A stretch of 46,716 nucleotides of DNA from Flavobacteriales bacterium (GTDB lineage Bacteria; Bacteroidota; Bacteroidia; Flavobacteriales_D; Sanyastnellaceae): positions 1 through 46,716 of the forward strand of contig NYSX01000015.1 in NCBI GenBank assembly GCA_002683345.1, in the 5' to 3' direction. Position numbers and translations under genes: made by a program. Under the pieces are notes generated by a model. It worked only from the letters and a program-made list of their open reading frames with translations, did no database searches and was not told the origin of the DNA. Shown here one piece after another: positions 2,364 through 42,860 of the stretch (within the stretch, counting starts at the first letter, position 1; the number at the start of each line of letters is the position of its first letter).

Positions 2364-5300
2364 ATGCTTGCGTTTATTCCGACCAACCGTCTTGGGAGAA
2401 GCGAAATTCTCTGCGCTTGGCGCCTCTCTTTGTCCCTTCTTTTGACATGGGCAGGGGTGCAAGCCATGCACGCCCAAACCGGCGGCGGCCTTGGCTGCGT
2501 CATCGATGCTGGAATTTCGCCGCAAGAAGTGTGCAAAGGAGACCATGTCGTTTTGGGCGGAAACCCAACCATCCCGTACAACCTGTCTCAGGAGTTCGCC
2601 TCGGTGTCGTGGTCTGTCTTGGAGGGAGATTCTGTGGCGTTTGATCCGTCTCCTGATGTGCCAAATCCATCGGTTCAGGTGGACGTCACAACGACCTTCT
2701 TGGTGGAATTGGTGCTGAATGACGGCTCGGTATGCAGCAGCACCATCACGTTGATCCCCATCACGGAACCCATGCTGGACCTTCAAGGAAGTTGGATCCA
2801 ATGCGGAGGCTCGACGTTGTTGTCGTTTTACAACACCTCCCCTTCCAACAGCGTGGCCATCACCTACGACGTCGATTGGGGAGATGGCAGCATGGACTCC
2901 GCATTGCCGTTTGCCACAGCCTTTCAACACGATTACGCCTCCTTGGGGCAATACGATGTGCAAGTCAGCGCCACTTTGGGAACCTGCGTGAATGAGGAAT
3001 CCATTGAAGTGTTCTTGGGCACCCCACCCGAACCGATTGAATTGGATGTGCCCGAATGGACGTGTTCTGGAAGCGAGGTCGCGTTTGAGTGGTCCAACCT
3101 GGATGGCTACCCCCTGGGTTCGAGTTGGGACATCCAAATCGATGGAAGTCCGGCTTTCAACGGTGCCGTCACGGACTCCACCGCCACTGAATTCACATGG
3201 AGCTTCGGAGAGTCTGTGACCTGTTTGGATGCGTTGGCGACGCATTCGGTCTACGCGCAACTCTCAAATGCTTGCCTTCCCGCAGTGAATGCCTCGGCGA
3301 GCTTCAACATCATCATGGAGCCCGAGGCCGACCTCGTTCTTGCGGGGGACTCGTGTGCCTTTGTGCAAATGTCTCTGGGCCCTGAAGTGGAATGTCCCGG
3401 TCTGCATTCGATCCAATGGAATGTCACCAGCGAAGGAGGAGAACCCGCATCGCTTTCCACCCATTCAGGCGGCCCCCAATCGACGTTTTGGACTGTGCAG
3501 CTTGACCCTGGGGAATACCAGACCACCTTGGAAGTCTCCAACCCCGCCTGTGGAAGCACTGCCGACACCGCGGCGTTTTGCGTCGAGATGTCTCCCCCGG
3601 GAGATTGGGCCACGCCGGGAGTGGCCAATGGGCAACAGTTCAACATTTGCGTCAACGAGGTCATCGACTTGTGGATCGACCCCATTGAATCCATTTGCGG
3701 CAGTGACATTGCCGGGGAATGGTTCGTCAGCCCCATGACCGAGGACACGGATCCTGAAGGATTCGAGACGCTTCTTAACGAGGAGTGGCACCGCAGTTGG
3801 TCGTTCCAAGCGCCAGGCATCTACCTGATTGAGCTTGAAGGCCAAATCGGATGTGGCGACCTCGACCTCTTCGCCTCAGTCGTGGTCACGGAACTGCCTG
3901 AAGTGACCTTGACCTCCTACGACAACGGTGTGCCCGATCAGGTGCTGTGCCGAGGAGACGAAGTGTCCGTCGTTGCAGAGGTCTCGGGGGTCGGGTTGAA
4001 CTCCGGAGCGTACGACTTGAATTGGAGTGTCCTGAATTCAGAAGGGCAGTCTCATCCCAGCGCAAGCGCCTACCAATACGGCGACTCGACCTTGATGGTC
4101 CAAAGCCATCCCAGCGCCCCAGCAGAAGACATTTTTGTGGCGCTGGAAGTTTTGTCCGCCTGCGGCCCGATTTACGACACCCTCCACCTTGAAGTGGAAG
4201 GCAACTTGCCCCTCAACTATTGGCTTGTCTCGGGCAGCGAAGGACCTGTGAACAACGGCATCCCCGAATTCGTGCAATGCCAAGGAGACTCGCTCGAATT
4301 GGGATTCGAGGTCCCCGGTGCTGCAGTCATGAACGTCTACTCCCAAACGTTTGACCTCTGGGACCTGACTTTTGACGAAGCGGAAGGCACGGGCGAGCTC
4401 ACGTGGCTGTCCAATGGGCTCAACTGGGATTTTGAATTGGAGTATTTGAGCGCGGAAGGGTGCCAAACCTTGGACACCCTTTCCTTCCGGACCATTTTCC
4501 GTCCAGAGGTGTTTGTCGATGCGCCAGGTTTGGTCTGTCAGGGGGATGCATCCCAATTCTCTGCGGTGGTGTTCCCTGGCTCGACAAGCAACTTCGGTGC
4601 CGTGAATTGGAGCGTCGGCGGCAGTTTGGTCCAATCGGGGTCTGAAACCGACTTCGCCTATGTCATGCCCGACTGCTTGAACAACCCCACCGTGACCTGC
4701 ACGGTCATCGACGAATTCGGGTGCCAAGCCTCCGCTCCCGCGGTGACGGCCCCCATCAGCTGTCCGCCCAGCACCTCCTCCCAGTTCTACAGCTGCGGCG
4801 AGGAAGGCGACACCCTTTGCCAATCGTGGGTTGATTCTCCGGTGGCCGGATGGCTGCTCGACGACAACATGTGGCTGGATGAAGACAGCCTGGGCACATG
4901 TGTGGTGGTCGACTCCATGTACGTGCATCATTCACTGACGTGGTACACCACCACGGAATTGGGATGTCAGCAAACAAACCACATGTGCTGGGGCGTGGGA
5001 GCTTTGGACAGTTTGGGGCAATGCACCGAAGTGCCTTGCAGTCCGCCACCACCGCCTCCTTGTGACGCGTTTCTGTGCGAAGACTCCTTGGCTTGCAACT
5101 ACGGCATCGCAACCTGTTGCTTGGATTCATGCGTCTTCCCCGAGTCAATCGGTGCCAACGAACTGGCATTTGACTCTCTGGTGTTTTGTCAGTCATGGAC
5201 GCCATACTTGCTCGAAGCCGAGTCGCCTTGGATTGGGAATTGGTCAGGCCCACGGGTGTCGGACAACTCACAGGTCAATTGCCCTGGCACCCAGGCGTAC

Positions 5301-9720: not shown

Positions 9721-10944
9721 TTACTGGTACACGCGCACGTAGTCTACAGCCATGAACTGAGGGAACAACGTGGTTTCGTCAGGCGATCCCGGCCAGTTTC
9801 CTCCAACCGCGATGTTGAAGATGAAAAAGAACGGGTCGTTGAATGGCGAGTCGAAGCCACTGGTGGCCACGTGCTGCTCCGTCGTCAGTTGGAAGTAAGG
9901 CTCGTCGTTCATCAACCACGTCATGGTGTCCGCAGACCACTCCAAAGAGAAGACATGGTATTCGTCCGAGAACGTCGTCGGGAAATCCGAGTACGTCACC
10001 GCACCCAAGTTGGGGTGACCACCACCGCTGATGGCGCCCCAGTGCGCGGTGCCGTGAACGTAGTTGGGCTGGTGCCCCAACAATTCCATGATGTCGATTT
10101 CGCCGCACTGCGGCCAGCCCACTTCGGTGAAGTTGGCGCCGAGCATCCACAAGGCGGGCCAAATCCCTTGACCATATGGCAACACCGCACGGATGTCGAT
10201 GCGGCCAAACTCGAACTCCTGCTTGTCGCGGGTGATCATTCGGGCTGAGGTGTATCCTGCCCCGTCTTGCATGGCCACGATGAACAGGTTGCCGTCCTCG
10301 ACGAAGGAATTCGCCGGATTTGCCGTGTAGGCTTGGAACTCGTTGTTGCCCCAACCTCCTGCACCCAGCTCGTGGGTCCAATCGTCCAAGTTGATGGCCG
10401 TGCCTTCAAACTCGTCGGACCAGGTCAACGTCATGCCTTCTGGCGGATTGGACGGCGAGTGTGGGGTGTCATACCCCCCTTCAGGAAGGGAGATGTCCAA
10501 CTCCGTGTCGTCGTTCAAGATGGTGCCTGTGGCCACCTGCTGGTTGCCCTTCAAGTATCCATTGACGGGATTCGACAACACCACGGTGAACTGCTCGTCC
10601 GCTTCCAAGCCTTCGTCAATCACGATGGGCACTTCGATTTGGGCGATGAGGTCACCTGGCTCAAAAACAAGTGTGCCCGACTGGGGCTCAAAGTCCTCCC
10701 CTGCCTTGGCCGTACCTTCGACGGTTTCATAGTCCGCCGTGACTTGAGCCGTGTTGCTCGCGTCGAGACGGACTTCAAAGCGAAACGTGCTGTTGAAGGT
10801 GTTTTCCAACGACGTGCGATCCGCCACAAACTGAATTTCAGAGTTTGTGGGCTCGGGACCGCCGCCGCAGTCAGAACACCCCACGGCAAGCGCCATCAAT
10901 CCCAACCCGCCAAGCAGGTTGGTGGACCATGTTGAACGGATCAT
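9721..10944 (-). CDS. GH16 endo-beta-1,3-glucanase (laminarinase-like) lipoprotein with Calx-beta domain
   Basis: 407 residues. A lipoprotein signal ends in LAVGC with Cys 23 as the lipidation site. Residues about 35-148 form a Calx-beta-like domain (YETVEGTAKAGEDF, GTILNDD). Residues about 168-407 are a GH16 catalytic domain. The active-site signature EIDIMELLGH places the nucleophile at Glu 282, Asp 284 and acid/base at Glu 287; WNNEF-like GWGNNEFQAY, WPALWMLG and HGTAHW are further laminarinase-type blocks. It should hydrolyse internal beta-1,3 bonds of laminarin-like glucans at the cell surface or in the periplasm. Its start overlaps the PKD lipoprotein stop by four bases. A different beta-glucan (for example lichenan) is a less likely substrate given the GH3/SusCD context. 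Confidence 0.92.
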   Translation of the reverse strand: MIRSTWSTNLLGGLGLMALAVGCSDCGGGPEPTNSEIQFVADRTSLENTFNSTFRFEVRLDASNTAQVTADYETVEGTAKAGEDFEPQSGTLVFEPGDLIAQIEVPIVIDEGLEADEQFTVVLSNPVNGYLKGNQQVATGTILNDDTELDISLPEGGYDTPHSPSNPPEGMTLTWSDEFEGTAINLDDWTHELGAGGWGNNEFQAYTANPANSFVEDGNLFIVAMQDGAGYTSARMITRDKQEFEFGRIDIRAVLPYGQGIWPALWMLGANFTEVGWPQCGEIDIMELLGHQPNYVHGTAHWGAISGGGHPNLGAVTYSDFPTTFSDEYHVFSLEWSADTMTWLMNDEPYFQLTTEQHVATSGFDSPFNDPFFFIFNIAVGGNWPGSPDETTLFPQFMAVDYVRVYQ

Positions 10945-11813: not shown

Positions 11814-13405
11814 TCGTAGCCTTCGTTTTGGGTCAATTGACCGTTGGACAAGGTGATTTCCGCGGTGGGAATGGGGAAGAGTTCGCTCTTGCCTTCCACA
11901 AACCCTTCGAGCACTTCTGCGGCGCGGCCTTGGCGCACCAAATCAAAGAAACGGTGCCCCTCAAGGCCCAATTCCACGCGGCGCTCGTGGTAGATCACGT
12001 CGAGCAAGGATCGGCCTGTGAGGCCCGCCAAGTTGATGACTTGACCCGCAGCATTTTCAAATTGAACGGCGTTGGCCGTCCCCTCTTTCACGGCGAGCAC
12101 GGAGGCACGCGCACGAACGAGGTTGAGGGACGCAATGGCCGCTGCATCGTCGCCTGTGAGATGACATGCCTCCGCATGCATCAACAGGACGTCGGCAAGG
12201 CGAATGACACGGTCGTTGGATCCTCCGTTGGGGTTGGGGTCGCCGAAAGGCGCCAATTCCGCGGCTGGGTTGAAGTACTTGCGTGGGTAGTATTCGCTGG
12301 TCATGCCCGTGGCATCTGCGGTGATGGTGCCCCAGTCCGAAGCATTGTCACCCAACGCGTACACGGTGTATCCCAACCGAGGGTCCGTCTTTTGGATGAC
12401 GTCGGGACCAATCTGCTCTTCCCACGTTTCGAATTCGTCCACGAAGTCCTGGGTGGGCAAGTTGAAGCCGTATCCACTGAACGTGCCGCGGGCGCGTTGG
12501 AACACGTTGGTGTAGGTGCCTTCGCTCCAAAATTGCGCACCCCAGTTTCCACCGGAGTTGTTCGCGTATTGGATTTCCCAAATGCTGCCGGGTCCGTTTT
12601 CACCACCTTCCGTGAAGATGTTGCCGTAGTTGGGATCCAGGAAGTACTCCCCGGAGCCCACGACCTCTTCGCAACGTGCGCGGCACTCCGCCATGTTGCC
12701 TTGGTAGAGTTGCGCCTTGGCCAACAAGGCATTTGCCGCACCACGCGTGGCTCGGCCCGTCTGCGATGTGCCGTACGCACTCTTGGCAGGCAAGTTGGCT
12801 GCGGCCTCTTCGAGGTCGGCGACGATTTGGGCCCAAACCTCCTCGTCCGTCGCACGTGGCTGTGCATACTCCGACGGCGCCAAAGGACGCGTCACAAGCG
12901 GCACACCGCCAAACGTGGTGACGAGGTTGAAGTACCAGTAAGCACGCAAGAACTGGGCCTCTCCGAGGTATGCGAGCTTGGTGAACTCGTCCATCTCAAT
13001 GCCAGGAATGTTCTCCAAAGCGAGGTTGCAGTAGGTGATGCCTTTGTAGGCTGTCTTCCATTCCCCGAGCACAATGCCGCTCGAAGGGTCGCCGTAGAAG
13101 CCCTCAAACTCGAGCAAGTCGGGCTCGTCGGTGTCTCCCGAGCCTCCCTTGTCGGCATCGTCGCTGACAATGTCACCGAAGTACCAACGGAAGTGTGCAC
13201 CGTCTGAGATTTCGACCTGCAAGGGCGCGTAGCAGGCAATGGTGGCTGCTTCCGCGTCTTCCGCCGTTTGGTAGAAGTTGCCCGCAGAGCTGCCGATGTA
13301 GGGATCACGATCCAAGAAGTCCTTGGAGCATCCCGTGTTGAGGAGCACAAAGACCATCAAGGTCAGCGCGCCCATCCATGAAAGGGTTGTTGCGTTGTGT
13401 TTCAT
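11810..13405 (-). CDS. SusD-family starch/glucan-binding outer-membrane lipoprotein
   Basis: 531 residues, normal for SusD. Lipoprotein signal MKHNATTL...LLNTGC with Cys 26, followed by the typical SKDFLDRDPY. TPR-like helical parts include AEDAEAATIACYAPLQ, LGEAQFLRAYWYFNLV with the conserved GGVPLVTRPL, and NALLAKAQLYQGN. The C-terminal RagB/SusD domain carries VIRLADVLLMHAEA, NLVRARA and the final IYHERRVELGLEGHRFFDL block and LFPIPTAEI. It caps the SusC barrel and binds the oligosaccharide before import. Its ATG shares one base with the SusC stop (TGATG), a strong sign of coupling. Confidence 0.97.
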   Translation of the reverse strand: MKHNATTLSWMGALTLMVFVLLNTGCSKDFLDRDPYIGSSAGNFYQTAEDAEAATIACYAPLQVEISDGAHFRWYFGDIVSDDADKGGSGDTDEPDLLEFEGFYGDPSSGIVLGEWKTAYKGITYCNLALENIPGIEMDEFTKLAYLGEAQFLRAYWYFNLVTTFGGVPLVTRPLAPSEYAQPRATDEEVWAQIVADLEEAAANLPAKSAYGTSQTGRATRGAANALLAKAQLYQGNMAECRARCEEVVGSGEYFLDPNYGNIFTEGGENGPGSIWEIQYANNSGGNWGAQFWSEGTYTNVFQRARGTFSGYGFNLPTQDFVDEFETWEEQIGPDVIQKTDPRLGYTVYALGDNASDWGTITADATGMTSEYYPRKYFNPAAELAPFGDPNPNGGSNDRVIRLADVLLMHAEACHLTGDDAAAIASLNLVRARASVLAVKEGTANAVQFENAAGQVINLAGLTGRSLLDVIYHERRVELGLEGHRFFDLVRQGRAAEVLEGFVEGKSELFPIPTAEITLSNGQLTQNEGYE

Positions 13406-16400
13406 CAGAACGTCACATTGATGCCCAGGTTGTAAATCCGGGGAGATGGGTAGAATCCGCGGTCAATGCCGATTTCCAGCGTGCCACGGGTGCCAATTTC
13501 AGGATCCAAGCCCGTGTACTTCGTAAACGTAAACAGGTTGTTGGCACTGGCGTAGATGCGGAACTTGGAGATGCCGACGCGGTCCAAGACCTCCGAAGGC
13601 AAGGTGTAGCCCACCATCAACGACTTCACCCGCAAGTAGGATCCGTCTTCGATGAAGCGGTCCGACACGCGGTTGTTTTGGTTGAGGTCAGAGTGGGTCA
13701 CACGAGGCGTCTCGTTGGTCGACCCCTCCCCTGTCCAACGATCCAAGGCCGAAATCGGCAGGTTGGTGGTGTTCAGATCGTAGCGGAACATCCCCTTGTA
13801 GATGTCATTGCCGTGGCTGCCCTGCAAGAACAAGTTCACGTCGAAGTTCTTGTACTTCGCACCGGCCGTGAAGCCGTACGTGAAGTCGGGGTGCGGGTTG
13901 CCGATGACCACTTTGTCTTCGTTGTTGATGACGCCGTCGCCGTTTTGGTCTACAAAGATGACATCACCCGCCACGGCGTTGACCTGGCTGGTGTCCGCCA
14001 TGGCCTCCTCGTCGGTTTGGTAAATGCCCGCCGTTTCAAAACCCCAGAAGGTCGCGATGGGCAAGCCGATGTCCGTGATCGCCACGAAGTCGCCTGAGCC
14101 AAACACGTTGCCCGTGAAAATGGGCTGGTTCAAGCTGTCGACTGGCGCACCGAGGTCGGTGACTTCGTTGCGGTACGCCGAGATGTTGCCGTTCAGGTTG
14201 TAGGTGAAGTCTCCCTCACCTCCCTGGTAGCCCACTGCCAATTCCGCACCGCGGTTGCGCGCAGAGGCCACGTTAGAAGGACCGGGTTCCAAACCGGCGG
14301 TGCCGGGGTTGGGCACGTAGGCCAACATGTCGATCGTGTTCTTTTCGTAGATGTCGAAAATGAGGTTCCAACGTCCGTCCAAGAAGTCCGCATCCACACC
14401 GAAGTTGATTTGCTCGCCCGTTTCCCACTTGAGGTCGGGGTTGGCGATGGCCACGGGACCTGAACCGATGATTTGGGTCTGCTCTTGGCCGAAGGTGTAG
14501 TTCAACCCGTTCACGATCACGGGGTTGTACGCGTAGTCACCGATCTCGGCATTTCCGTTGCGTCCCCAGCTTCCGCGAACCTTGAAGAAGTCGATCCAGT
14601 CCTTCTCGTCGAACCATGGACGCTCGGTCAAGTTCCAAGCCGCAGAGAACGAGGGGAACAATCCGAAGCGGTTGTTCAATCCAAAGCGGGAAGAACCGTC
14701 GTAACGCAAGGTACCCATCAAGGACCACTCTTTGCCGAGGTCGTACGTGGCACGGACAAACTGTCCAATCCATGCGGTTTCGCTGATGCCGTCGCTGGCC
14801 CGTGGGATTTGGGGTTCCACGTTCAAGCTGTTGCTCAAGAACGCGTAGGTGGGGTTGTTGGTCGCCAAGCTGTCACGTGAAGCCGTGATGCTCGTGGAGC
14901 GAGACTCCAAGGCAGAGTAACCTGCAATGACCTGAAGCTTGTCCTCGTTCTCGAACTCCTTGGTGTACGTCAGGGTGTTCTCCCACTGCCACGTCGACCA
15001 CTTGTTCTCGGCGCGAATCAAAGAGTTGACCTCGCGGAATTCGGTGGCGGGACGGTTGGGATCGCCGGGGAACAACGCCAAGTCATAGGCTGGCAAGAAG
15101 ATGTTCTGAGAACCCAAGGCCAAATCCACGTTGACCGAAGAACGGAACTTCAGGTTGGGCGTCAAATCCATTTCCCCGAAGACGTTCCCCACAAATCGGT
15201 TGGTCGTCCAGTTGTCGTACGTCTGCTCGATTTGGTTGATGGGGTTCACGATGTCGCTGTCGATGTAGTCCGTGTACGCGTACTGACCGTCGGGACGTGT
15301 CACCGGCGTGACAGGATCCATGTTCAACGCGCGCACCACCGGCGTCGCGAATTCGTTGTTGACCGCGAGGGCACTGCGGTTGATGTTCGTGAAGGTCACG
15401 TTTTGGCCCACCTTGATGCGATCTCCAGCTTGCTGCTCGGAGTTCACACGGAACGTGGTCCGCTCAAAGCGCCCCTTCTCTCCACCAATGATGCCATCTT
15501 GGGAGAAGTGACTGGCACCCATGGCCATGCTCGAGGTCTCTGTGCCGTTGGTGTAGAGCACGCTGTGGTTGGACATGGGGGCACGTTGGAACATGGCTTC
15601 TTGCCAGTTGGTTCCTTGGCCCAAAGACGCGGGATCCGTCAACCCAGGCAATGCCGCCAAGCCGGCAGCCGCGCGGCTTTCGTTCATCAACGTCGCGTAC
15701 TCCTCCGCATTCAACAGCGCCATGAATTTCCAAGGCTCTTGCATGCCGATGTAAGAGTCGTACGTCAGGGTCGCCTTGCTTCCGCGCGATCCCTTTTTGG
15801 TCGTGATCAACACCACCCCGTTCGCACCGCGCGCGCCATAAATGGCCGTCGACGCCGCATCCTTCAAGATGCTGATGCTCTCAATGTCCGAAGGGTTCAA
15901 GTAGTCGATGCCTCCAGAAGGGATGCCATCCACGATGAACAAGGGGTCCGAATTGTTAATCGAACCGAGACCACGGATGCGGATGGTCTGCGTGGAACCG
16001 GGCTGGCCCGAGTTCTGCGTGACCTGCACCCCTGCCGCACGGCCTTGAAGGGCCTGTTCGGTGCGCAAGACGGGGATGCTCGTGGCTTCCTTGATGTCGA
16101 CGGTGGTCACCGCACCAGAGATCTTGCTGCGCTGTTGGTTGCCGTAACCAATGACCACGGCTTCTTCCAGTCCAGCCACGTCGGGCTGAAGCACAACCTT
16201 GAGGTCAGACACCGTGTTGGCCACAGTCAACTCTTGGCGGAGGTAGCCGATGTAGGAGAACACCAAGGTGGCTCCAGACTCGGCCGTCAAGGCAAATTTT
16301 CCGTCCAGGTCGGTTGCCGTACCGGCATAAGACCCTTTCACGGTCACCGAAACGCCGGGAAGGGGCATGTCCCCATCCACGACCGTTCCTCCGACCGAAA

Positions 16401-16476
16401 TCGTTTGGGCCAAAAGCCCTGAGCTCGCTCCGAAGAGCAAGACCAGGGCCATCAGCGATGAGATGCGTTGAATCAT
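13405..16476 (-). CDS. SusC-family TonB-linked outer-membrane oligosaccharide importer
   Basis: 1023 residues, the normal SusC length. Signal peptide 1-24, carboxypeptidase-regulatory-like domain about 27-98 (GVSVTVKGSYAGTATDLDGK), TonB-box-like EEAVVIGYG at 104-112, plug about 115-235 with the SusC hallmarks LQGRAAGVQV, IRIRGLGSINNSDPLFIVDG and AIYGARGANGVVLITTKKG, and then the 22-strand barrel ending in an aromatic residue (NLGINVTF). It imports glucan oligosaccharides in partnership with SusD. The start overlaps the stop of the CBM-like T9SS gene by four bases and the stop overlaps SusD by one. No frameshift or missing segment was seen. Confidence 0.97.
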   Translation of the reverse strand: MIQRISSLMALVLLFGASSGLLAQTISVGGTVVDGDMPLPGVSVTVKGSYAGTATDLDGKFALTAESGATLVFSYIGYLRQELTVANTVSDLKVVLQPDVAGLEEAVVIGYGNQQRSKISGAVTTVDIKEATSIPVLRTEQALQGRAAGVQVTQNSGQPGSTQTIRIRGLGSINNSDPLFIVDGIPSGGIDYLNPSDIESISILKDAASTAIYGARGANGVVLITTKKGSRGSKATLTYDSYIGMQEPWKFMALLNAEEYATLMNESRAAAGLAALPGLTDPASLGQGTNWQEAMFQRAPMSNHSVLYTNGTETSSMAMGASHFSQDGIIGGEKGRFERTTFRVNSEQQAGDRIKVGQNVTFTNINRSALAVNNEFATPVVRALNMDPVTPVTRPDGQYAYTDYIDSDIVNPINQIEQTYDNWTTNRFVGNVFGEMDLTPNLKFRSSVNVDLALGSQNIFLPAYDLALFPGDPNRPATEFREVNSLIRAENKWSTWQWENTLTYTKEFENEDKLQVIAGYSALESRSTSITASRDSLATNNPTYAFLSNSLNVEPQIPRASDGISETAWIGQFVRATYDLGKEWSLMGTLRYDGSSRFGLNNRFGLFPSFSAAWNLTERPWFDEKDWIDFFKVRGSWGRNGNAEIGDYAYNPVIVNGLNYTFGQEQTQIIGSGPVAIANPDLKWETGEQINFGVDADFLDGRWNLIFDIYEKNTIDMLAYVPNPGTAGLEPGPSNVASARNRGAELAVGYQGGEGDFTYNLNGNISAYRNEVTDLGAPVDSLNQPIFTGNVFGSGDFVAITDIGLPIATFWGFETAGIYQTDEEAMADTSQVNAVAGDVIFVDQNGDGVINNEDKVVIGNPHPDFTYGFTAGAKYKNFDVNLFLQGSHGNDIYKGMFRYDLNTTNLPISALDRWTGEGSTNETPRVTHSDLNQNNRVSDRFIEDGSYLRVKSLMVGYTLPSEVLDRVGISKFRIYASANNLFTFTKYTGLDPEIGTRGTLEIGIDRGFYPSPRIYNLGINVTF

Positions 16477-18005
16477 TTCACGAAGCTCCAGGAAGCGCGC
16501 GCTTCCTCATTTGAGATTTGGATGGTGTACACTCCGGCGTTCCATGACGCGGCGTCCAACACCAAAAGCTGTTGGTTGGGCAACATTTGCGTGCTTTCGA
16601 TCAAGCGACCTTGAACGTCGCGGATGTCGACGCGTGCAGCGCTGCTCAAAGGCGTCGCCAAACGCACGTTCAATGCGTCCGTGACTGGCACGGGGAACAA
16701 CGAACCTTCGAGGGCAGTGAATTCCATAATGCCGTCGACCGTCATGGTCAAGCTGGCCGTTGCCGTGCAGCCGTTGGCATCTGTCACCACGGCCGTGTAC
16801 AAGCCCCCAGACAAAGAATCAGGGTTGGCTTCCATGCCGGTCATGTTGTTCCACACCACAGTGTAGTCAGGCGTGCCGCCCGTGACCGTGGCTTCCGCCT
16901 GGCCATCGCCTGCGCCTGAGTCCTCAGCCAAGATGGAAACGTCAATCACAAGTTCATCGGGTTCACCAATGGTGAAAGCTGTCTCGCTGGAGCAACCGAG
17001 CGTGTCTGTCGCCACAAAAATGTAGTCCCCTGCTGGCAGCGTTTCTCCCGCTCCAAGTACTTCGACTGAGATCAATCCATCATCCAAAAGAAGCATTGTT
17101 GCCGAATCCAACGAAAGCGTGCCCTCTCCACCGAAGCAAAGAGCGTCCTCCACAGTCAGCTCCACAACGGGACCGTCACCAAACACGCAGCTGCCGTCGT
17201 CTTCCGTGGCTGCCGCATCGTAGTTGCATGCCGTGGCGTCTGTGCAACCAGGCACAGGCTCGGCGTTGCAGGCCGTGCATTGGTTGTAACACACAACTGG
17301 CAACTCCAAGTCACCGGTCACATCGAGGGTACGGTTGATGTAACCGTCAATGGTGGAGGTGCATGGGTCGCCATCCATGAACTCTTCTTGCGCAGTCCAG
17401 CCGTCCAAGGTGAACTTGTACTCGAAGGTGCCACCGGGCAAGTCCACAGGAAGTTCGAACACCATGTCGCCGTCGTCGTCGGTCATGGTCGCACAAGCGC
17501 CGCACCAACCGTTGAAGGAACCATTGAGGTTGACCGTTCCATACGTACCGCCGTATTCACTCATGTCCACGCGGAACAACACTGTGCCGCCTGGAGGAGG
17601 AGGCACGTCGTTGCAAGTACCATCACAGGTACCGTAGTAGTCGCTTGCCACGGAACCGGCTTCGATTTGACGATTGGCGTAGCCACTGTAGTCTGTGACA
17701 GGTGCGCACGTCGCACCGTCGACCATGTCGTTCACCAAATTTTCTTGATCGGCAAATCCGTTGATGGCGTACTTGTATTCCACCACACCCGTCAAGTCTG
17801 CGACTTCCACGGAGTACACGCCGTCCCCGTCGGGGTCGGTCATCGTGTTGTACGTGTCATTGGCGCACCAGCCGCACCAAGGGCCAGTCACAAACACGTT
17901 GTCAAAGCCCTCAGGGGCACAGGTCATGTCCACGTTGAACGTGGTTTGGGCTTGGGTACCCACTGCGAGGAGGGCTGCAGCAGCCAGGGAGAACAATTGT
18001 TTCAT
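16473..18005 (-). CDS. T9SS-secreted protein with two CBM-like modules, GCTD motif and SprB-like repeat
   Basis: 510 residues. Signal peptide 1-20. Two related beta-sandwich modules at about 22-130 and 140-245 share the pattern ...GPWCGWC / NGSFNGWCGAC, then DDDGDMVFELPVDL and FEYKFTLDGW; this layout resembles AMPK/CBM48-type glycan-binding modules. A short motif GCTDATACNYDAAATEDDGSC lies at 253-273. A SprB-like repeat follows at about 365-430 (GGTPDYTVVWNNMTG, YTAVVTDANGCTATAS). A T9SS type A domain ends the protein (SLFPVPVTDALNV to WSFVK). It is probably a surface glucan-binding protein. It lies 11 bases after GH3 and overlaps SusC by four bases, so it belongs to the glucan operon. Binding specificity is inference. 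Confidence 0.85.
   Translation of the reverse strand: MKQLFSLAAAALLAVGTQAQTTFNVDMTCAPEGFDNVFVTGPWCGWCANDTYNTMTDPDGDGVYSVEVADLTGVVEYKYAINGFADQENLVNDMVDGATCAPVTDYSGYANRQIEAGSVASDYYGTCDGTCNDVPPPPGGTVLFRVDMSEYGGTYGTVNLNGSFNGWCGACATMTDDDGDMVFELPVDLPGGTFEYKFTLDGWTAQEEFMDGDPCTSTIDGYINRTLDVTGDLELPVVCYNQCTACNAEPVPGCTDATACNYDAAATEDDGSCVFGDGPVVELTVEDALCFGGEGTLSLDSATMLLLDDGLISVEVLGAGETLPAGDYIFVATDTLGCSSETAFTIGEPDELVIDVSILAEDSGAGDGQAEATVTGGTPDYTVVWNNMTGMEANPDSLSGGLYTAVVTDANGCTATASLTMTVDGIMEFTALEGSLFPVPVTDALNVRLATPLSSAARVDIRDVQGRLIESTQMLPNQQLLVLDAASWNAGVYTIQISNEEARASWSFVK
17181..17249 (-). repeat. GCTD-ACNY-DDGSC motif in the PUL-encoded T9SS protein
   Basis: Encodes residues 253-275 of the CBM-like protein. 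The same 20-24 residue pattern (GCTD, two to four residues, ACNY or ALNF, then DDGSC) occurs twice in the CotH protein of this window, and a divergent form occurs in the giant protein. It is a short Cys/Asp-rich inter-domain motif of unknown function. Confidence 0.7.
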
Positions 18006-18016
18006 GGATCGTATGA

Positions 18017-20392
18017 TTATTTCTTCAATTCAAATTCTGTGAGTTGGTCCCGCACGCGTAAGCCAAAAGTGCCTGGCTCTACCACATGCTTAAGTTTGAG
18101 TCCGACAAAGCCAAGGTTCGATGTTGGGACGCGTAACTGAACCTGTTTTGTTGCACCAGCGCCCACAAAAACGCGTTTGTAGGCCCTGAGTTTCTCCATG
18201 TTCGGAGTAATGGACGCAACGCGGTCTTGCACAAACAACATGACCACTTCAGCACTGGCACGGTTCCCAAGGTTTTCAAGGGTCACCTCCACGAGCAACT
18301 CGTCACCCATGTGTATATCACCCTCGTTCAAAATCCGCAAAGCGGTTGTTTTTACCTCGCTGTAGCTCAGACCATGGCCAAACAAATACTGCGGCCTGTA
18401 TGCGCTTTTCTTCGCATTTTTATGAACATCTTCTGTCCCTTTGCGATCGTAGGTCACGTGAGATGATGCCTCCCGTGGCCAAGTGAAAGGAAGACGTCCG
18501 GATGGATTGTAGGCCCCACTGAGAACCTGGGCAATCGCAGGTGCACCGAATTCCCCAGGCAGATAAGCCATCACCACGGCGTCCATGTCTTGCTCCACCT
18601 GTGAGAACGTACGAGGCCGACCTTGGACAAACACCCCCACCACTTGAATCCCTGTGGCTGCGACTGCACGCACGAGGTCCAGTTGGTTGTCAGGAAGACG
18701 CAAATCACCGATGTTGCCAAAAATCTCTGTGTATGGCATTTCCCCCAGAAACAACACTGCCACTTCCGGATTGGAACCCTCCATTGCTTGGATCACCCTT
18801 TGAATGTCCTCTGCACCGAATTCCATGTCATCCAGCGCTTCAAATGCAATGCGACTGGCCCCAAATTCTTCGCGCAATCCCTCCACGGCTGTCAATCTCC
18901 CGGGATTGTTGTACTTGGGATTTTTGCCCTGCCACGTGCCCGACCAGCCTCCATTCAACGCATTCAATGAGTTGGCAGTGGGTCCCGACACGAAAATCGT
19001 ACCGGTGCCTCCCAATGGCAACAGAGGCTGATTGGGGTACACCGCATGGGTTCCTTCGTTCTTCAACAACGTAATGCACTCAAGTGCTGCACGCGCTGCA
19101 GGTCCAGCCAAGGCCTGACGTTCGTCTTCTGTCAGTGCTGGAGGCAATTCAAATCCCCCTTCTTCCAAAAGCCCAAGTTTCTCCTTCACGGAGAGAATTC
19201 GACGAACGCTCAAGTCGATGCGGCTTTCCGGGATTTGGCCTTCTACCACGAGTTCTTTCAAAAGAACCGGAAATTCCAGGTCTTGCGGCACCATGCTCAT
19301 GTCAATCCCTGCCAAAATCGCCATTCTGATGGCTTCTTTGTATGTGGCCGCCACACGATGCCTTTTCACCAAGTATTTGATGTCTTCCCAATCTGTCACG
19401 ACCAATCCCTCAAAACCAAGCTCACCACGAAGGATGTCTGTCAGCACGAAGCGATTGACGTGCGTTGGAATGCCATTCATCTCCCCACTGTTTACCATCA
19501 CAGTCATCGCACCCGCGTCGACGGACTGCTTAAAAGGTGGTAGAAAAATCTCTCGCAGCTGACGTTCTGGGATGTAAGCTGGCGTGCGGTCTTTCCCACT
19601 CCATGGGGTGCTGTAACCCATGTAGTGTTTGAGTGTGGCTGCAACTTTGACGGGGCCTTCTTGAAAACCCCGCACCATGGCCTCGCCCATGTCGCCAACG
19701 AGCATGACATCTTCGCCAAAGGTTTCCCAAAACCTCGGCCAACGAGGGTCACGTCCGACGTCCAATACCGGAGCAAAATTCCAAGGAATGCCACACGCAT
19801 CAATTTCTTGCGCTGTCCCTTCTGACATTTTTCGAACCAACGCGGTGTCCCATGTTGCTGCCAGTGCAATCTGCTGCGGCCCCAAGGCCGCTCCCGATGT
19901 GTAAGTTGCGCCATGAATGGCATCCACCCCATACAAAGTGGGGATGCCCTTGGCTGCGATGCTTGCCTTTTGGATTCCAGAAACGAGTTCGCGCCATTGC
20001 GCGGTCGGGTATGCATGCCCACCACAATTCAGCACGCTCCCGATGCGCCCTTCCTGAAATGCAGCGTGCAGTTTGCTTTCGTCCAAAGCATGGGGCTCGT
20101 CAAGAACAACGTAAACTCCGGGTTTTTCACTCAGCTCTCCTTCACAAAGCATATTCAACGTCAGCTGAGTCATTTCTCCCACCTTGTCGTCCAATGTCAT
20201 TCCAGACAACAGGGATTCCACAGCAGCTGAACCGCGAAACTTCTCAAGCTCGGAATCTGTGATGCCGGAGTGGGCCACGTCATTTTTACACGACGTTCCC
20301 CCGAACATCCAAACCAGCGCGAGCGCACAGGCGACCATGCAATTACGGCGAGTGATTTTAGGGCACAAGATGGTTGCGAGGGAAAGGCGCAT
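18017..20392 (-). CDS. GH3 family beta-glucosidase lipoprotein
   Basis: 791 residues. The N-terminus has a basic stretch (KITRRN) and hydrophobic segment ending GGTSC, so Cys 35 is a likely lipid anchor. The GH3 (alpha/beta)8 domain spans about 60-400: GMTLDDKVGEMTQL, YGVDAIHGATY, NFAPVLDVGRDPRW, the KHYMGY substrate loop (Lys 255, His 256) and VVTDWEDIKYL with the nucleophile Asp 334. The GH3_C sandwich follows (ALECITLLKNEG, FVSGPTANSLNALNGGW, GRLPFTWPRE), then an Fn3-like tail from about 690. It should release glucose from beta-linked gluco-oligosaccharides in the periplasm or at the surface. It is the first gene of the operon. Base composition is visibly lower in GC than its neighbours (30 of 60 at 19801-19860 against 35 of 60 at 12601-12660). 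Confidence 0.94.
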   Translation of the reverse strand: MRLSLATILCPKITRRNCMVACALALVWMFGGTSCKNDVAHSGITDSELEKFRGSAAVESLLSGMTLDDKVGEMTQLTLNMLCEGELSEKPGVYVVLDEPHALDESKLHAAFQEGRIGSVLNCGGHAYPTAQWRELVSGIQKASIAAKGIPTLYGVDAIHGATYTSGAALGPQQIALAATWDTALVRKMSEGTAQEIDACGIPWNFAPVLDVGRDPRWPRFWETFGEDVMLVGDMGEAMVRGFQEGPVKVAATLKHYMGYSTPWSGKDRTPAYIPERQLREIFLPPFKQSVDAGAMTVMVNSGEMNGIPTHVNRFVLTDILRGELGFEGLVVTDWEDIKYLVKRHRVAATYKEAIRMAILAGIDMSMVPQDLEFPVLLKELVVEGQIPESRIDLSVRRILSVKEKLGLLEEGGFELPPALTEDERQALAGPAARAALECITLLKNEGTHAVYPNQPLLPLGGTGTIFVSGPTANSLNALNGGWSGTWQGKNPKYNNPGRLTAVEGLREEFGASRIAFEALDDMEFGAEDIQRVIQAMEGSNPEVAVLFLGEMPYTEIFGNIGDLRLPDNQLDLVRAVAATGIQVVGVFVQGRPRTFSQVEQDMDAVVMAYLPGEFGAPAIAQVLSGAYNPSGRLPFTWPREASSHVTYDRKGTEDVHKNAKKSAYRPQYLFGHGLSYSEVKTTALRILNEGDIHMGDELLVEVTLENLGNRASAEVVMLFVQDRVASITPNMEKLRAYKRVFVGAGATKQVQLRVPTSNLGFVGLKLKHVVEPGTFGLRVRDQLTEFELKK

Positions 20393-40304: not shown

Positions 40305-42860
40305 TCAGCACGTCTCGCCATAGACGCTCAGGATTTCCAGGAAGTCGGACACCGTCACCTGGCCGTCGTCGTCCATGTCTGCAGTGCAGTCGACAATGCA
40401 GCCAAACTCGGACAAGGCCGCCAAAATGTCTGACACCCCCACGGCCAGGTCGCCGTCCAAATCACCTGGGCATTCACATGGCTCGCAGCTGCCGTCGTCA
40501 AACAGCGCCGTCGGTTCGTAGTTGCATGCCGTGACGTCGGTGCAACCGGGAATGCACGTCCCTTCGATGTTGTCGTCCAACCACGCCACGCGCTCCAAAA
40601 TCCAGTTGCGCAAAAAGGCCACTTCTTCCTCGTAGGTCTGGCCAATGAAGACGTTGGGCCAGACGTATTGGCCGAGTCGTGGCCAACGGGCGTGGTCCCG
40701 GACGCTAGGCTCGGCCAACACCGCAGACAGCGAATCGATGATGCCATTCAAGCTCTCGTCGCTCCACACGTCAGACCGGTAATCGTCCCACATGCATTTC
40801 GTCAACCCGCGATAAGCCGGGTCCTCTCGCAGTCGCTGCCACCAAAACGGATGGAGCACGTTGCATCCCGTGTTGGACTCAAAGCCCGAGGTGAAGTAAC
40901 TGTCGCACCCGTCGGAATTGCCGAAACCCAAGTTGTAATCCCACCAGGGGCCCATCACGATTTGGCCTCCATCCGAATCCTTCTCTTTGTAGAAGTAGGT
41001 GCTCAAGCGATAGGCGTCGACGTTCTTCGTGATTTCGTTGGCAAAATACATGTCGATGAACGACTCGGGCTCGATGTACGCCTTGTAGCCCAACACCGGA
41101 TCTGTGAAGTCGGGGCCCGCCAGGGCATGCTCGAATTGCGTGAAGTGGTCTTCGATGTACGCGAGTTGCAGGGGGTGCAAATCCTCGGCTTCCGGCTTGT
41201 GCATTTGGATGAATTGCTCGTCTCCCCCCAAGCGCGGGTACGGCGACACCCACCCCCCTTCAAAGTCTCCCTGGATGCGGTCCACCTTCATGATGTAGCC
41301 GCCGGTGAGCTCGTTGCCCACAGTGTCCGTCGGAAGCAACGTGGCAATGTCCACGCGGTCGTTGTCGCGCTTGATGTTTTCCATCAGCATGTACACGCCG
41401 CGGTAGTCGTCATTGATGTAGAGCTCGCAGTACCTCCGTCGGGTCGTGTAGCGCCCGATTTTGTCCCCCATCTCGTAAATGAGGGCGTTGCGCATCAGGG
41501 TTTTGTCTGAATACGGGCCGTGGAGAATCCAATCGTTCTCCGTCGGCATGCCCAACAGCGACACGTTGTTGTTCGCCCCGAGGGAATCCTGGGTTTCCAG
41601 CGCGTAGGACTGCTTGGGGAAAAACTGCGAGGACGAGCCGCGGATTTCGATGGTGATTTGGCCATTGTACTCGTAGGTCGTGTCGCTCAGTGAATTGAAC
41701 CCGCTTTCCAAGTTGGTGACCTTCATGTTGGCGACGATGCGCGGGTCGTCCAAAATCGGGCTGTCCGTGGTCACTTGCACCAACGGGAGGGTCGACTCGT
41801 TCATGTAAATGCAGGACCCGTCGTCCTCCGTGGCTGCATCCCAAAAGTTCAGCGCCGCCTCGTCCGTGCACCCCTGGTTGGCCGCACAGCTTCCGTCCGT
41901 GGTGCACTGGCTGAAGCAGGTGTTCACCTCGATGGAGGACGTGACGTTGACCAAGAGCCGGTCGTTCCAATTGAAGGGATCGGCACACTCCTGTCCCACG
42001 ATGTTTTCCTTGCAGCTCCAATCCTCGCACGCCCCATTGGTGAACGTGTAGTGCCCGGTGAAGCCATGAGGCACCTGCACGGTGATGGACCAGATGCCAT
42101 CTCCGTCGTCGTCAGCCATGGGATAATCCCCAGGAAACCCAAAGTTTCCGCCCCCCGCCAAAAACACGCCCTCCGGGGACACGGTTTCGTTGGCCATGTT
42201 CAAGTTGAACGTCACGAAATGCGAATCCGCTGCAGGGGCCTGAAACCACGCCGGCGGGGCGCCGAAGGTGTTGCCTGCGTCAGCCGCACCCAAAAACAGG
42301 AAGGGCCGCGCCGTGAAGTCTGAACTCGAGATGCTGTTGTTGTGAACCTCCACGGCCAACACATTTGTGCCCGACACCAACAGACCGGGGTTGACGTCCA
42401 TCAAATCGGGCGTTCCACCTGCATAGAGTACCGCTTCGTGCCACCCGTCCAAAATGGCATCCCAGGCGAGCACCTCACCAGGCTCCCCCGCATTGCCCCG
42501 GGCGATTTCAGTGCCGTTGAGGTAGGCCACAAAGCCGTCATCGTAGTCCACCGCCAGCAGGGCTGCCGGAAAGCTGCTGGCATCGTCGACCTGAAACACG
42601 TGGCGCATGTAGATGCTGTTTGAGGGCGGGATGACCGTGACATCGTCCCCGTCTCCGTAGCCAAATCCCGAAACCCCTTCACTCCATCCGGTGGCGGCGA
42701 AGTTGGTGAACATCCAATACGGCAGGGGCTGCGAGGTGGGGAGAAGGTAATCCCATGTGGATCCGTCTTGCACCACGGCTTCCCAGTGATCGACAGGGCC
42801 TTGCGCTGTCGCACCCCAGTGCAACAGAACCCCCACCAACATGACGAAATACTTCCTCAT
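40305..42860 (-). CDS. Secreted CotH-family protein with CBM-like module, GCTD motifs and dockerin-like C-terminus
   Basis: 851 residues. Signal peptide 1-20. An N-terminal jelly-roll-like domain spans about 22-195 (FQVDDASSFPAALLAVDYDDGFVAYLNGTEIARG). A CBM-like module at about 215-320 is related to those in the glucan-operon T9SS protein (MADDDGDGIWSITVQVPHGFTGHYTFTNG). A GCTD motif sits at 330-352. The CotH kinase-like domain spans about 395-740 (IEIRGSSSQFFPKQSYALET, DWILHGPYSDKTLMRNALIYEMG, VYMLMENIKRDNDRVDI, MGPWWDYNLGFGN). A second GCTD motif lies at 772-794, followed by two Ca-binding-like loops (GDLDGDLAVGVSDIL, DMDDDGQVTVSDFLEIL) forming a dockerin-like tail. There is no ordinary T9SS domain. 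CotH domains phosphorylate protein in Bacillus spores; the target here is unknown. Confidence 0.88.
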   Translation of the reverse strand: MRKYFVMLVGVLLHWGATAQGPVDHWEAVVQDGSTWDYLLPTSQPLPYWMFTNFAATGWSEGVSGFGYGDGDDVTVIPPSNSIYMRHVFQVDDASSFPAALLAVDYDDGFVAYLNGTEIARGNAGEPGEVLAWDAILDGWHEAVLYAGGTPDLMDVNPGLLVSGTNVLAVEVHNNSISSSDFTARPFLFLGAADAGNTFGAPPAWFQAPAADSHFVTFNLNMANETVSPEGVFLAGGGNFGFPGDYPMADDDGDGIWSITVQVPHGFTGHYTFTNGACEDWSCKENIVGQECADPFNWNDRLLVNVTSSIEVNTCFSQCTTDGSCAANQGCTDEAALNFWDAATEDDGSCIYMNESTLPLVQVTTDSPILDDPRIVANMKVTNLESGFNSLSDTTYEYNGQITIEIRGSSSQFFPKQSYALETQDSLGANNNVSLLGMPTENDWILHGPYSDKTLMRNALIYEMGDKIGRYTTRRRYCELYINDDYRGVYMLMENIKRDNDRVDIATLLPTDTVGNELTGGYIMKVDRIQGDFEGGWVSPYPRLGGDEQFIQMHKPEAEDLHPLQLAYIEDHFTQFEHALAGPDFTDPVLGYKAYIEPESFIDMYFANEITKNVDAYRLSTYFYKEKDSDGGQIVMGPWWDYNLGFGNSDGCDSYFTSGFESNTGCNVLHPFWWQRLREDPAYRGLTKCMWDDYRSDVWSDESLNGIIDSLSAVLAEPSVRDHARWPRLGQYVWPNVFIGQTYEEEVAFLRNWILERVAWLDDNIEGTCIPGCTDVTACNYEPTALFDDGSCEPCECPGDLDGDLAVGVSDILAALSEFGCIVDCTADMDDDGQVTVSDFLEILSVYGETC
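40314..40478 (-). other. Dockerin-like paired Ca-loop tail of the CotH protein
   Basis: Encodes about residues 795-849. Two 12-residue DxDxDG-type loops (GDLDGDLAVGVSD and DMDDDGQVTVSD), each followed by a short hydrophobic helix, are separated by a Cys pair (FGCIVDC) and the protein ends YGETC. The pattern is that of a type I dockerin/EF-hand pair. Confidence 0.6.
40479..40547 (-). repeat. GCTD-ACNY-DDGSC motif, second copy in the CotH protein
   Basis: Encodes residues 772-794 (GCTDVTACNYEPTALFDDGSC...). It directly precedes the dockerin-like tail. Confidence 0.7.
41805..41873 (-). repeat. GCTD-ALNF-DDGSC motif, first copy in the CotH protein
   Basis: Encodes residues 330-352 (GCTDEAALNFWDAATEDDGSC...). 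It links the CBM-like module to the CotH domain. Confidence 0.7.

What the first reader, a model, noticed from the sequence alone, without database searches (positions are those of the whole stretch)
16473..18005. Shared module plus GCTD motif found in otherwise unrelated secreted proteins
The module with DDDGDG...YKFT/YTFTNG followed by a CxxC-rich end occurs twice in the glucan-operon protein and once in the CotH protein, and in both proteins a GCTD...DDGSC motif follows. A divergent form (CEDSLACNY) is in the giant protein at 5073-5138. This implies a common building set for surface proteins in this organism. The role of the short motif (calcium or disulphide spacer, or protease/attachment site) is unknown.
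Basis: seen in the sequence. Interest (0 to 1): 0.5.

Follow-up and report, generated by a model that had tools for sequence, protein, structure and literature searches.

The report
Mobile disulphide mini-module in surface proteins
A 21-residue cysteine motif noticed in two secreted proteins belongs to an uncatalogued family of tiny disulphide-linked modules that this bacterium carries more than 160 times, that also occurs in archaea and phages, and that resembles the hinge of the mammalian immune protein perforin-2.

Summary
The observation mostly holds. Three related CBM48/AMPK-type modules are present: two in P0001 (16473-18005) and one in the CotH protein. Three copies of GCTDxxAxNYxxxAxxDDGSC (the "A-unit") follow or flank them. 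The proposed divergent copy in the giant protein is not supported (3.2 bits).

The A-unit is no chance motif. The genome has 85 strict DNA matches (0 in the control) and 162 protein-level matches. All 25 family members searched have at least 52 copies; only 26 of 395 genomes drawn across the phylum have any. Exact matches also lie in records labelled Neomarinimicrobiota and archaea, and in phage contigs. No Pfam or NCBIfam family was seen to cover it.

Cysteine covariation supports two disulphides: C2-C21 always, and an optional C8 that pairs with a spacer cysteine (29/29 with, 26/26 without, in this genome). A three-unit array is predicted at pLDDT 94.

The A-unit profile's only PDB matches are MPEG1/perforin-2, where the segment appears to be the small "EGF-like" hinge.

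Best reading: a disulphide-stapled spacer or hinge between folded domains and anchors, amplified across aquatic surface proteins and virions. Calcium binding is untested. Many carriers end in dockerin-like tails although no cohesin was found.

The parts
16473..18005 (-). P0001: signal peptide, two CBM48/AMPK-type modules, one A-unit, beta-rich region, T9SS type A sorting domain
   Evidence: translation; Pfam and NCBIfam
17607..17945 (-). CBM48-like module 1 of P0001 (residues 21-133)
   Evidence: 35% identical to module 2, 53.5 bits
17262..17588 (-). CBM48-like module 2 of P0001 (residues 140-248)
   Evidence: AMPK1_CBM 36.4 bits (cut-off 26.8), CBM_48 26.7 (cut-off 22.4) for the whole protein, best stretch 157-230
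17187..17249 (-). A-unit GCTDATACNYDAAATEDDGSC (residues 253-273)
   Evidence: profile 37.6 bits
16476..16700 (-). T9SS type A sorting domain (Por_Secre_tail)
   Evidence: 38.7 bits, cut-off 27
40305..42860 (-). P0005: CotH kinase-like secreted protein with CBM48-like module, two A-units and a dockerin-like tail
41886..42224 (-). CBM48-like module of P0005 (residues 213-325)
   Evidence: 41.2 bits to module 2; no Pfam match of its own
41811..41873 (-). A-unit without C8 (GCTDEAALNFWDAATEDDGSC, residues 330-350)
40578..41651 (-). CotH kinase domain (residues 404-761)
   Evidence: Pfam CotH 195.6 bits
40485..40547 (-). A-unit with C8 (GCTDVTACNYEPTALFDDGSC, residues 772-792), followed by an extra Cys
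40308..40472 (-). Dockerin-like tail: two calcium-loop-helix halves at the extreme C terminus
   Evidence: predicted helices 48-56 and 76-86; top PDB hit dockerin 2y3n_B; tail profile hits
18017..20392 (-). GH3 glycosidase of the glucan locus
   Evidence: Pfam; conserved neighbour
13405..16476 (-). SusC/RagA transporter of the glucan locus
   Evidence: TIGR04056 867.7 bits
11810..13405 (-). SusD-like lipoprotein
   Evidence: Pfam
9721..10944 (-). GH16 glycosidase with Calx-beta domain
   Evidence: Pfam

Best explanation
The GCTD...DDGSC motif (A-unit) is a self-contained mini-module of 21 residues, closed by a C2-C21 disulphide. An optional second disulphide joins C8 to a cysteine in the 4-9 residue spacer that follows. 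It works as a rigid but hinge-capable spacer: singly between a binding or catalytic domain and its neighbour, or as arrays that push domains away from the cell-surface anchor (T9SS sorting domain or dockerin-like tail here; lipoprotein or membrane anchor in archaea; virion structural proteins in phages). It has been copied and exchanged as a module. In the window it separates glucan-binding CBM48-like modules from the rest of a T9SS-exported protein of a laminarin-type utilisation locus, and flanks the CotH domain in P0005. Shown: the copies, their spread, the cysteine covariation, the confident predicted fold, the profile match to perforin-2. Inferred: the disulphides themselves, the spacer or hinge role, surface exposure, the substrate.
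For: Copy number far beyond chance. Cysteine covariation in this genome: in 55 neighbouring pairs with spacer <= 12 residues, C8 present goes with one spacer Cys in 29 of 29, C8 absent with none in 26 of 26. Counting cysteines inside the unit too, 54 of 55 have an even total against a shuffled mean of 0.50, maximum 0.73. In loci of other genomes 87.0% of 123 are even against a shuffled mean of 0.54, maximum 0.71. AlphaFold2 of a three-unit array: mean pLDDT 94.2; A-unit of the P0005 tail 91-94 by ten-residue block. All five PDB sequences that the A-unit profile lists up to E 10 are MPEG1/perforin-2, E 2.4e-5 to 0.0051; the reversed-profile control finds nothing below 0.46. Papers on perforin-2 describe a small EGF-like folded linker or hinge between MACPF and P2/MABP, unresolved in the pore form. 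Archaeal copies follow a lipoprotein-like leader (L169) or lie in a protein with a C-terminal hydrophobic anchor (L126). In 19 of 23 dockerin-tailed frames the last unit lies 6-35 residues before the tail. P0001 orthologs in congeners keep the A-unit with C8 (10 of 10 ortholog loci L331-L338, L341, L342).
Against: Exceptions to the cysteine rule exist in other genomes: 16 of 123 pairs have odd totals, 9 of them C8 units without a visible partner. In viral units C8 is so rare that the rule cannot be tested (0.932 even against 0.933 shuffled). The Foldseek match to MPEG-1 is not significant on its own (E 2.0-3.4, 28 columns) and uses sequence as well as shape; VIA-align gave no Z of 2 or more. 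No MACPF protein found in Bacteroidota carries the unit (0 of 16 loci). The hinge and spacer role is inferred, not tested; what C8 of the single unit in P0001 pairs with is unknown.
Confidence: 0.62

Rival explanations
1. The A-unit is a small calcium-binding repeat (TSP3- or cbEGF-like): the conserved D4, N9, D17, D18 and backbone hold a Ca2+ ion that stiffens arrays in seawater.
For: D4 71-86%, D17 79-91%, D18 79-92% across three sets; N9 is fixed by the search pattern. Neighbouring B-units DxDGDGxCD look TSP3-like and TSP3_bac matches 2 of 41 frames.
Against: No ion evidence here. 'Calcium' does not occur in the main text of three perforin-2 papers searched, which is weak evidence. TSP3 models were not seen to match the unit itself.
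Confidence: 0.25
2. The A-unit is a processing, attachment or sorting signal of the type IX secretion system.
For: In this genome it often lies just before the C-terminal tail, and 10 of 41 frames match Por_Secre_tail.
Against: Position and number vary (1 to 19 per dockerin-tailed frame); it occurs in archaeal records and phage virion proteins; frames with it end in either of two unrelated tails.
Confidence: 0.05
3. The A-unit is a ligand-binding module (glycan or protein) that adds avidity when arrayed.
For: Arrays in giant secreted proteins and phage proteins and a glucan-binding neighbour in P0001.
Against: Conserved positions look structural (Cys, Gly, Asn, Ala, Asp); positions 5, 6, 12, 13 and 16 vary freely; single units are common.
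Confidence: 0.1
4. The resemblance to the perforin-2 hinge is convergence of a short two-cysteine loop, not common descent.
For: Only 21 residues; no MACPF link in Bacteroidota; Foldseek E above 1.
Against: 12 of 21 residues of the human unit equal the profile consensus, E 2.4e-5 with all listed hits in one protein family and a clean reversed control; a giant-virus MACPF protein also matches the array model over 28 columns at 54% identity.
Confidence: 0.3

Closest known systems
Small EGF-like hinge of MPEG1/perforin-2
   Same: 21-residue unit with the same two cysteines and GCT...DD.SC frame; sits between two folded domains; described as a folded linker or hinge
   Different: Single copy between MACPF and P2/MABP in a metazoan immune protein; prokaryotic copies are amplified, arrayed and in other contexts
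EGF-like domains
   Same: Small extracellular disulphide modules used as spacers, often in arrays
   Different: EGF has six cysteines in 30-40 residues (recalled); the A-unit has two invariant ones and an optional third
Thrombospondin type 3 and bacterial TSP3 repeats (PF18884)
   Same: Acidic, short, arrayed spacer repeats in secreted proteins; they resemble the B-units (DxDGDGxCDxxE) next to A-units
   Different: The A-unit itself was not seen to match the TSP3 model and has a different pattern
CBM48 / AMPK1_CBM glucan-binding modules
   Same: The larger shared module of P0001 scores above Pfam cut-offs; PDB hits are CBM48-type (SEX4, DSP4, SIP2)
   Different: Here with added cysteines and a C-terminal cysteine-rich end, fused to the T9SS sorting domain; the copy in P0005 has no Pfam match of its own
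Dockerin type I
   Same: Two predicted loop-helix halves; top PDB match is a dockerin (2y3n_B, TM by target 0.75, E 0.05)
   Different: P0005 tail below Pfam and NCBIfam cut-offs, extra cysteines, elsewhere often only one half, and no cohesin found in the genome

Membership tests
MPEG1/perforin-2 hinge unit | 21-residue sequence pattern with two cysteines | tested here: met
   A2 profile: five MPEG1 sequences at E 2.4e-5 to 0.0051, nothing else up to E 10; reversed control best 0.46
MPEG1/perforin-2 hinge unit | Lies after a MACPF domain | tested here: not met
   No MACPF in this genome; 0 of 16 Bacteroidota MACPF loci hold the unit
MPEG1/perforin-2 hinge unit | Same three-dimensional fold | tested here: inconclusive
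   Foldseek ranks MPEG-1 first but E 2.0-3.4; VIA-align no Z of 2 or more
EGF-like domain | Six cysteines paired 1-3, 2-4, 5-6 (recalled) | tested here: not met
   Two invariant cysteines plus optional C8
EGF-like domain | Match to a Pfam EGF model | tested here: not met
   None for four unit-bearing proteins at E up to 10; none among the 25 of 35 families shown for 41 frames
TSP3 repeat | Match of the A-unit to a TSP3 model | tested here: not met
   TSP3_bac matches 2 of 41 frames only; none for unit-rich L067, L073, L077 at E up to 10
CBM48/AMPK1_CBM | Score above the curated cut-off | tested here: met
   P0001: 36.4 bits vs 26.8 and 26.7 vs 22.4; the P0005 module has no Pfam match of its own
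CBM48/AMPK1_CBM | Binding of alpha- or beta-glucan | not testable with these tools
   needs a binding assay
T9SS cargo (P0001) | Type A or B sorting domain at the C terminus | tested here: met
   38.7 bits vs 27
T9SS cargo (P0005) | Type A or B sorting domain at the C terminus | tested here: not met
   None found; ends in a dockerin-like tail
Dockerin (P0005 tail) | Score above Dockerin_1 or dockerin_GC cut-off | tested here: not met
   9.7 bits vs 22.9; 15.3 vs 29. One Dockerin_1 hit elsewhere in the genome, over the cut-off
Dockerin (P0005 tail) | Cohesin partner in the genome | tested here: not met
   0 PF00963 matches; the genome is only 73% complete

The most novel reading that the evidence does not exclude
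The A-unit is one homologous, mobile extracellular module shared by Bacteria, Archaea, tailed phages, a giant-virus MACPF protein and the hinge of animal perforin-2: an ancient prokaryotic and viral surface spacer that was recruited as the pivot of an innate-immune pore former.
Probability: 0.4. Interest if true: 0.78.

Novelty: new variant of a known kind. Interest (0 to 1): 0.6.

Why it matters
A module present from about 50 to more than 150 times per genome in a whole family of Flavobacteriales, and found in many phage contigs, was not seen among the Pfam or NCBIfam matches, so parts of the surface proteome of these bacteria carry no annotation. Naming it gives a marker for secreted and surface proteins, a disulphide rule that can be tested by mass spectrometry, and a small spacer that could be useful in protein design. 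The link to the perforin-2 hinge offers bacterial arrays as simple models for a little-studied part of an immune effector.

Tried and rejected
Tried and led nowhere. The first pattern search had too short a gap and found nothing; corrected. Paper searches with fragments of the motif found no paper describing it: GCTD+DDGSC gave one unrelated phosphoproteomics paper seen in the listing only, CTDPTACNY none, six further fragments none. A paper on cysteine-rich repeats and phage recombination sites (PMC7379824, abstract and passages) concerns other repeats. Searches on CBM48 and laminarin, on dockerin and T9SS, on TSP3 and marine repeats and on perforin-2 relatives were used as listings only. PHROGs gave no match for the unit alone.

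Considered and rejected. A chance motif (85 against 0). A T9SS sorting or cleavage site (varying place, archaea and phages). A plain EGF domain (cysteine count). The divergent copy in the giant protein (3.2 bits). A MACPF link within Bacteroidota (0 of 16).

Rows dropped and limits. A1 used 41 of 43 frames; L067 was scanned later, L077:1-1260 was not. The 43 frames include two likely spurious ones (L074; L077:1-1260), and the 216 relaxed units are a pattern count, not a curated one. A2 used 72 of the 85 units picked; the 13 dropped include six with an extra inner cysteine, so the profile leans to the canonical form. A3 used 64 of 144 triple arrays. Group labels were assigned by me from the titles.
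Full report
What is in the window. P0001 (16473-18005, minus) is a signal-peptide protein with two related modules, one GCTD...DDGSC unit, a beta-rich stretch and a T9SS type A sorting domain (the signal peptide is read from the sequence, no predictor was run). It lies between GH3 and SusC/SusD genes, with a PKD-like protein and a GH16 enzyme following. The same order, GH3 - P0001 - SusC - SusD - the PKD-like protein, is kept in 5 of 5 congeners inspected (the outer genes cut by the stretch end in some); P0001 is 59-79% identical, SusC 81-96%. So 'glucan operon' is fair; the substrate (laminarin-type beta-glucan) is inferred from GH16 plus GH3. The CotH protein P0005 (40305-42860, minus) has one such module, two units and a dockerin-like tail.

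The larger module. The three copies align over about 110 residues (pairs 53.5, 41.2 and 32.7 bits). P0001 scores above the Pfam cut-offs for AMPK1_CBM and CBM_48, and a profile of the three copies matches SEX4/DSP4 glucan phosphatases in the PDB (E 3.7e-5 and 3.3e-4) with weaker hits to SIP2 and an alpha-amylase chain. This is therefore a known kind, a CBM48-type module with added cysteines. The stretch with both modules recurs in another protein of the same genome at 77% identity.

The short unit is real and abundant. A strict DNA pattern finds 85 matches in the 1.85 Mb genome and 0 for the reversed pattern. tblastn counts 162 matches, with 150 of 290 candidates scored. A relaxed protein pattern finds 216 units in 43 open frames. 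Around them lie further cysteine repeats: B-units such as EYAEEYYDCDGNCLNDADGDGVCDELEV and C-units such as DECGVCGGDNSTC. No model covering the unit was seen in Pfam (41 frames, 25 of 35 families shown; four unit-bearing proteins at E up to 10) or NCBIfam (25 of 46 shown).

Spread. In 395 genomes drawn across the phylum 26 have it, most with one copy. Identical hit coordinates tie G045 to record L098 (Cryomorphaceae bacterium RI_182, same family), G403 to L097 and G396 to L103 (Flavobacteriales bacterium UBA7382, same genus), so the organism belongs with records labelled Flavobacteriales. Counted per genome in 24 chosen genomes (24 of 24 match), two Neomarinimicrobiota have 31 and 96 copies, a marine group III genome 21, a Poseidoniales genome 10, two Nanoarchaeota 1 each. 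The viral scan stopped at 120 stretches, with 489 units in 122 frames. Ten neighbour proteins of four viral loci were scanned: a short tail fibre protein in L219, a virion structural/head protein in L238 and a ribonucleotide reductase in L289 matched PHROGs; the other seven, all three of L298 among them, did not. Named Synechococcus phages carry the unit in virion structural proteins.

Cysteines. In this genome, for 55 neighbouring unit pairs with spacers up to 12 residues, C8 goes with exactly one spacer cysteine (29 of 29) and its absence with none (26 of 26) (Fisher p 2.8e-16, not corrected for common descent of copies). Counting inner cysteines as well, 54 of 55 totals are even, against a shuffled mean of 0.50 and maximum of 0.73 in 10,000 shuffles. 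In other genomes 87.0% of 123 are even, shuffled mean 0.54, maximum 0.71; 16 are exceptions. In viral units C8 is nearly absent and the test says nothing. Archaeal units have C8 in 0 of 17. Units just before a tail follow the rule too: C8 with an extra cysteine in 3 of 14 rows and neither in 11, although one of the three (L175) also has an inner cysteine (counted by eye). This supports C2-C21 as the constant bond and C8-spacer as an optional one.

Structure and the perforin-2 link. A three-unit array is predicted at mean pLDDT 94.2 (pTM 0.63) with short strands and no helix. The A-unit profile's PDB hits up to E 10 are five MPEG1/perforin-2 sequences, best E 2.4e-5, with 12 of 21 residues of the best-scoring unit equal to the profile consensus; a reversed profile finds nothing below 0.46. 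Foldseek also puts MPEG-1 first for the array, but at E 2.0-3.4 and not independently of sequence; VIA-align gives no Z of 2 or more. Passages of PMC6989145 and its conclusion section call the segment between MACPF and P2 a truncated EGF-like domain that provides the focal point of the rotation. Passages of PMC7593815 call it a small folded linker postulated to be EGF-like, and of PMC9713709 say it is unresolved in the pore. The word EGF does not occur in PMC6753088. That the 21 residues are this hinge rests on the place of the match in the chain (332-352 and 333-353 of about 645, and 4-24 of the 295-residue chain 6sb1), so it is an inference. Structures of viral proteins in BFVD that match the array include phage proteins and a Terrestrivirus MACPF protein (28 columns, 54% identity, E 0.012). 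No MACPF was found in this genome, and none of 16 MACPF loci from 15 of 296 Bacteroidota genomes has the unit.

How it most likely works. The unit is a closed loop that can be set between any two extracellular parts without disturbing them. In 19 of 23 dockerin-tailed frames the last unit lies 6-35 residues before the tail. In two archaeal examples it follows a lipoprotein-like leader or lies in a protein with a hydrophobic C-terminal anchor. In perforin-2 it bridges two domains that move against each other. A spacer or hinge is the simplest common role. Calcium binding is possible and untested; the word 'calcium' does not appear in the main text of three perforin-2 papers searched, which is weak evidence.

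Verdict. The CBM module is known; the short unit is an uncatalogued module family as far as the libraries and papers searched here show, with one probable known relative, the perforin-2 hinge.

Noticed in passing
window 40308-40472 and genome-wide: Dockerin-like C-terminal tail (CxxDLNGDGxVxxxDLLxFLxxFGxxC, one or two copies): 81 matches in about 57 frames of this genome (frames counted by hand) although no cohesin was found; of 296 phylum genomes only the window's family and order give strong matches. Of 43 unit-bearing frames 23 end in it and about 11 in a T9SS domain, so it may be an alternative surface-retention or sorting tail.
   Followed up: partly
L073:2-3226, L067:2400-10715: Two further cysteine-repeat types beside the A-unit: B-units (DCDGNCLNDADGDGVCDELEV) and C-units (DACGVCNGPGEIYECGCSDIPEGDCDCDGNQLDALGVCGGDC) in long arrays; L067 (2772 residues) has no Pfam match at all up to E 10.
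   Followed up: no
L080:6093-9848: The DDCGVCGGDNSSC stretch resembles part of ADAMTS: PDB hit to ADAMTS5 9rwm at E 6.6e-4 over 22 residues.
   Followed up: no
L077:3049-6609: A 1187-residue protein with several CBM48-type modules plus a CBM_20 match, 77% identical to P0001 over residues 7-249, ending in a dockerin-like tail.
   Followed up: partly
G433:C2:1693040-1694803 (genome of L164): Nine equal-scoring A-units and one more, spaced 189 bases apart, pointing to recent tandem duplication.
   Followed up: no
window 42971-46477: Protein P0006: sortilin/BNR-like repeats with a PKD domain and a weak T9SS domain, upstream of the CotH gene.
   Followed up: no
viral loci L208-L327: Viral A-units often have a hydrophobic residue (F/L/I) at position 8, where cellular ones often have Cys, and are almost all of the two-cysteine type.
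   Followed up: partly
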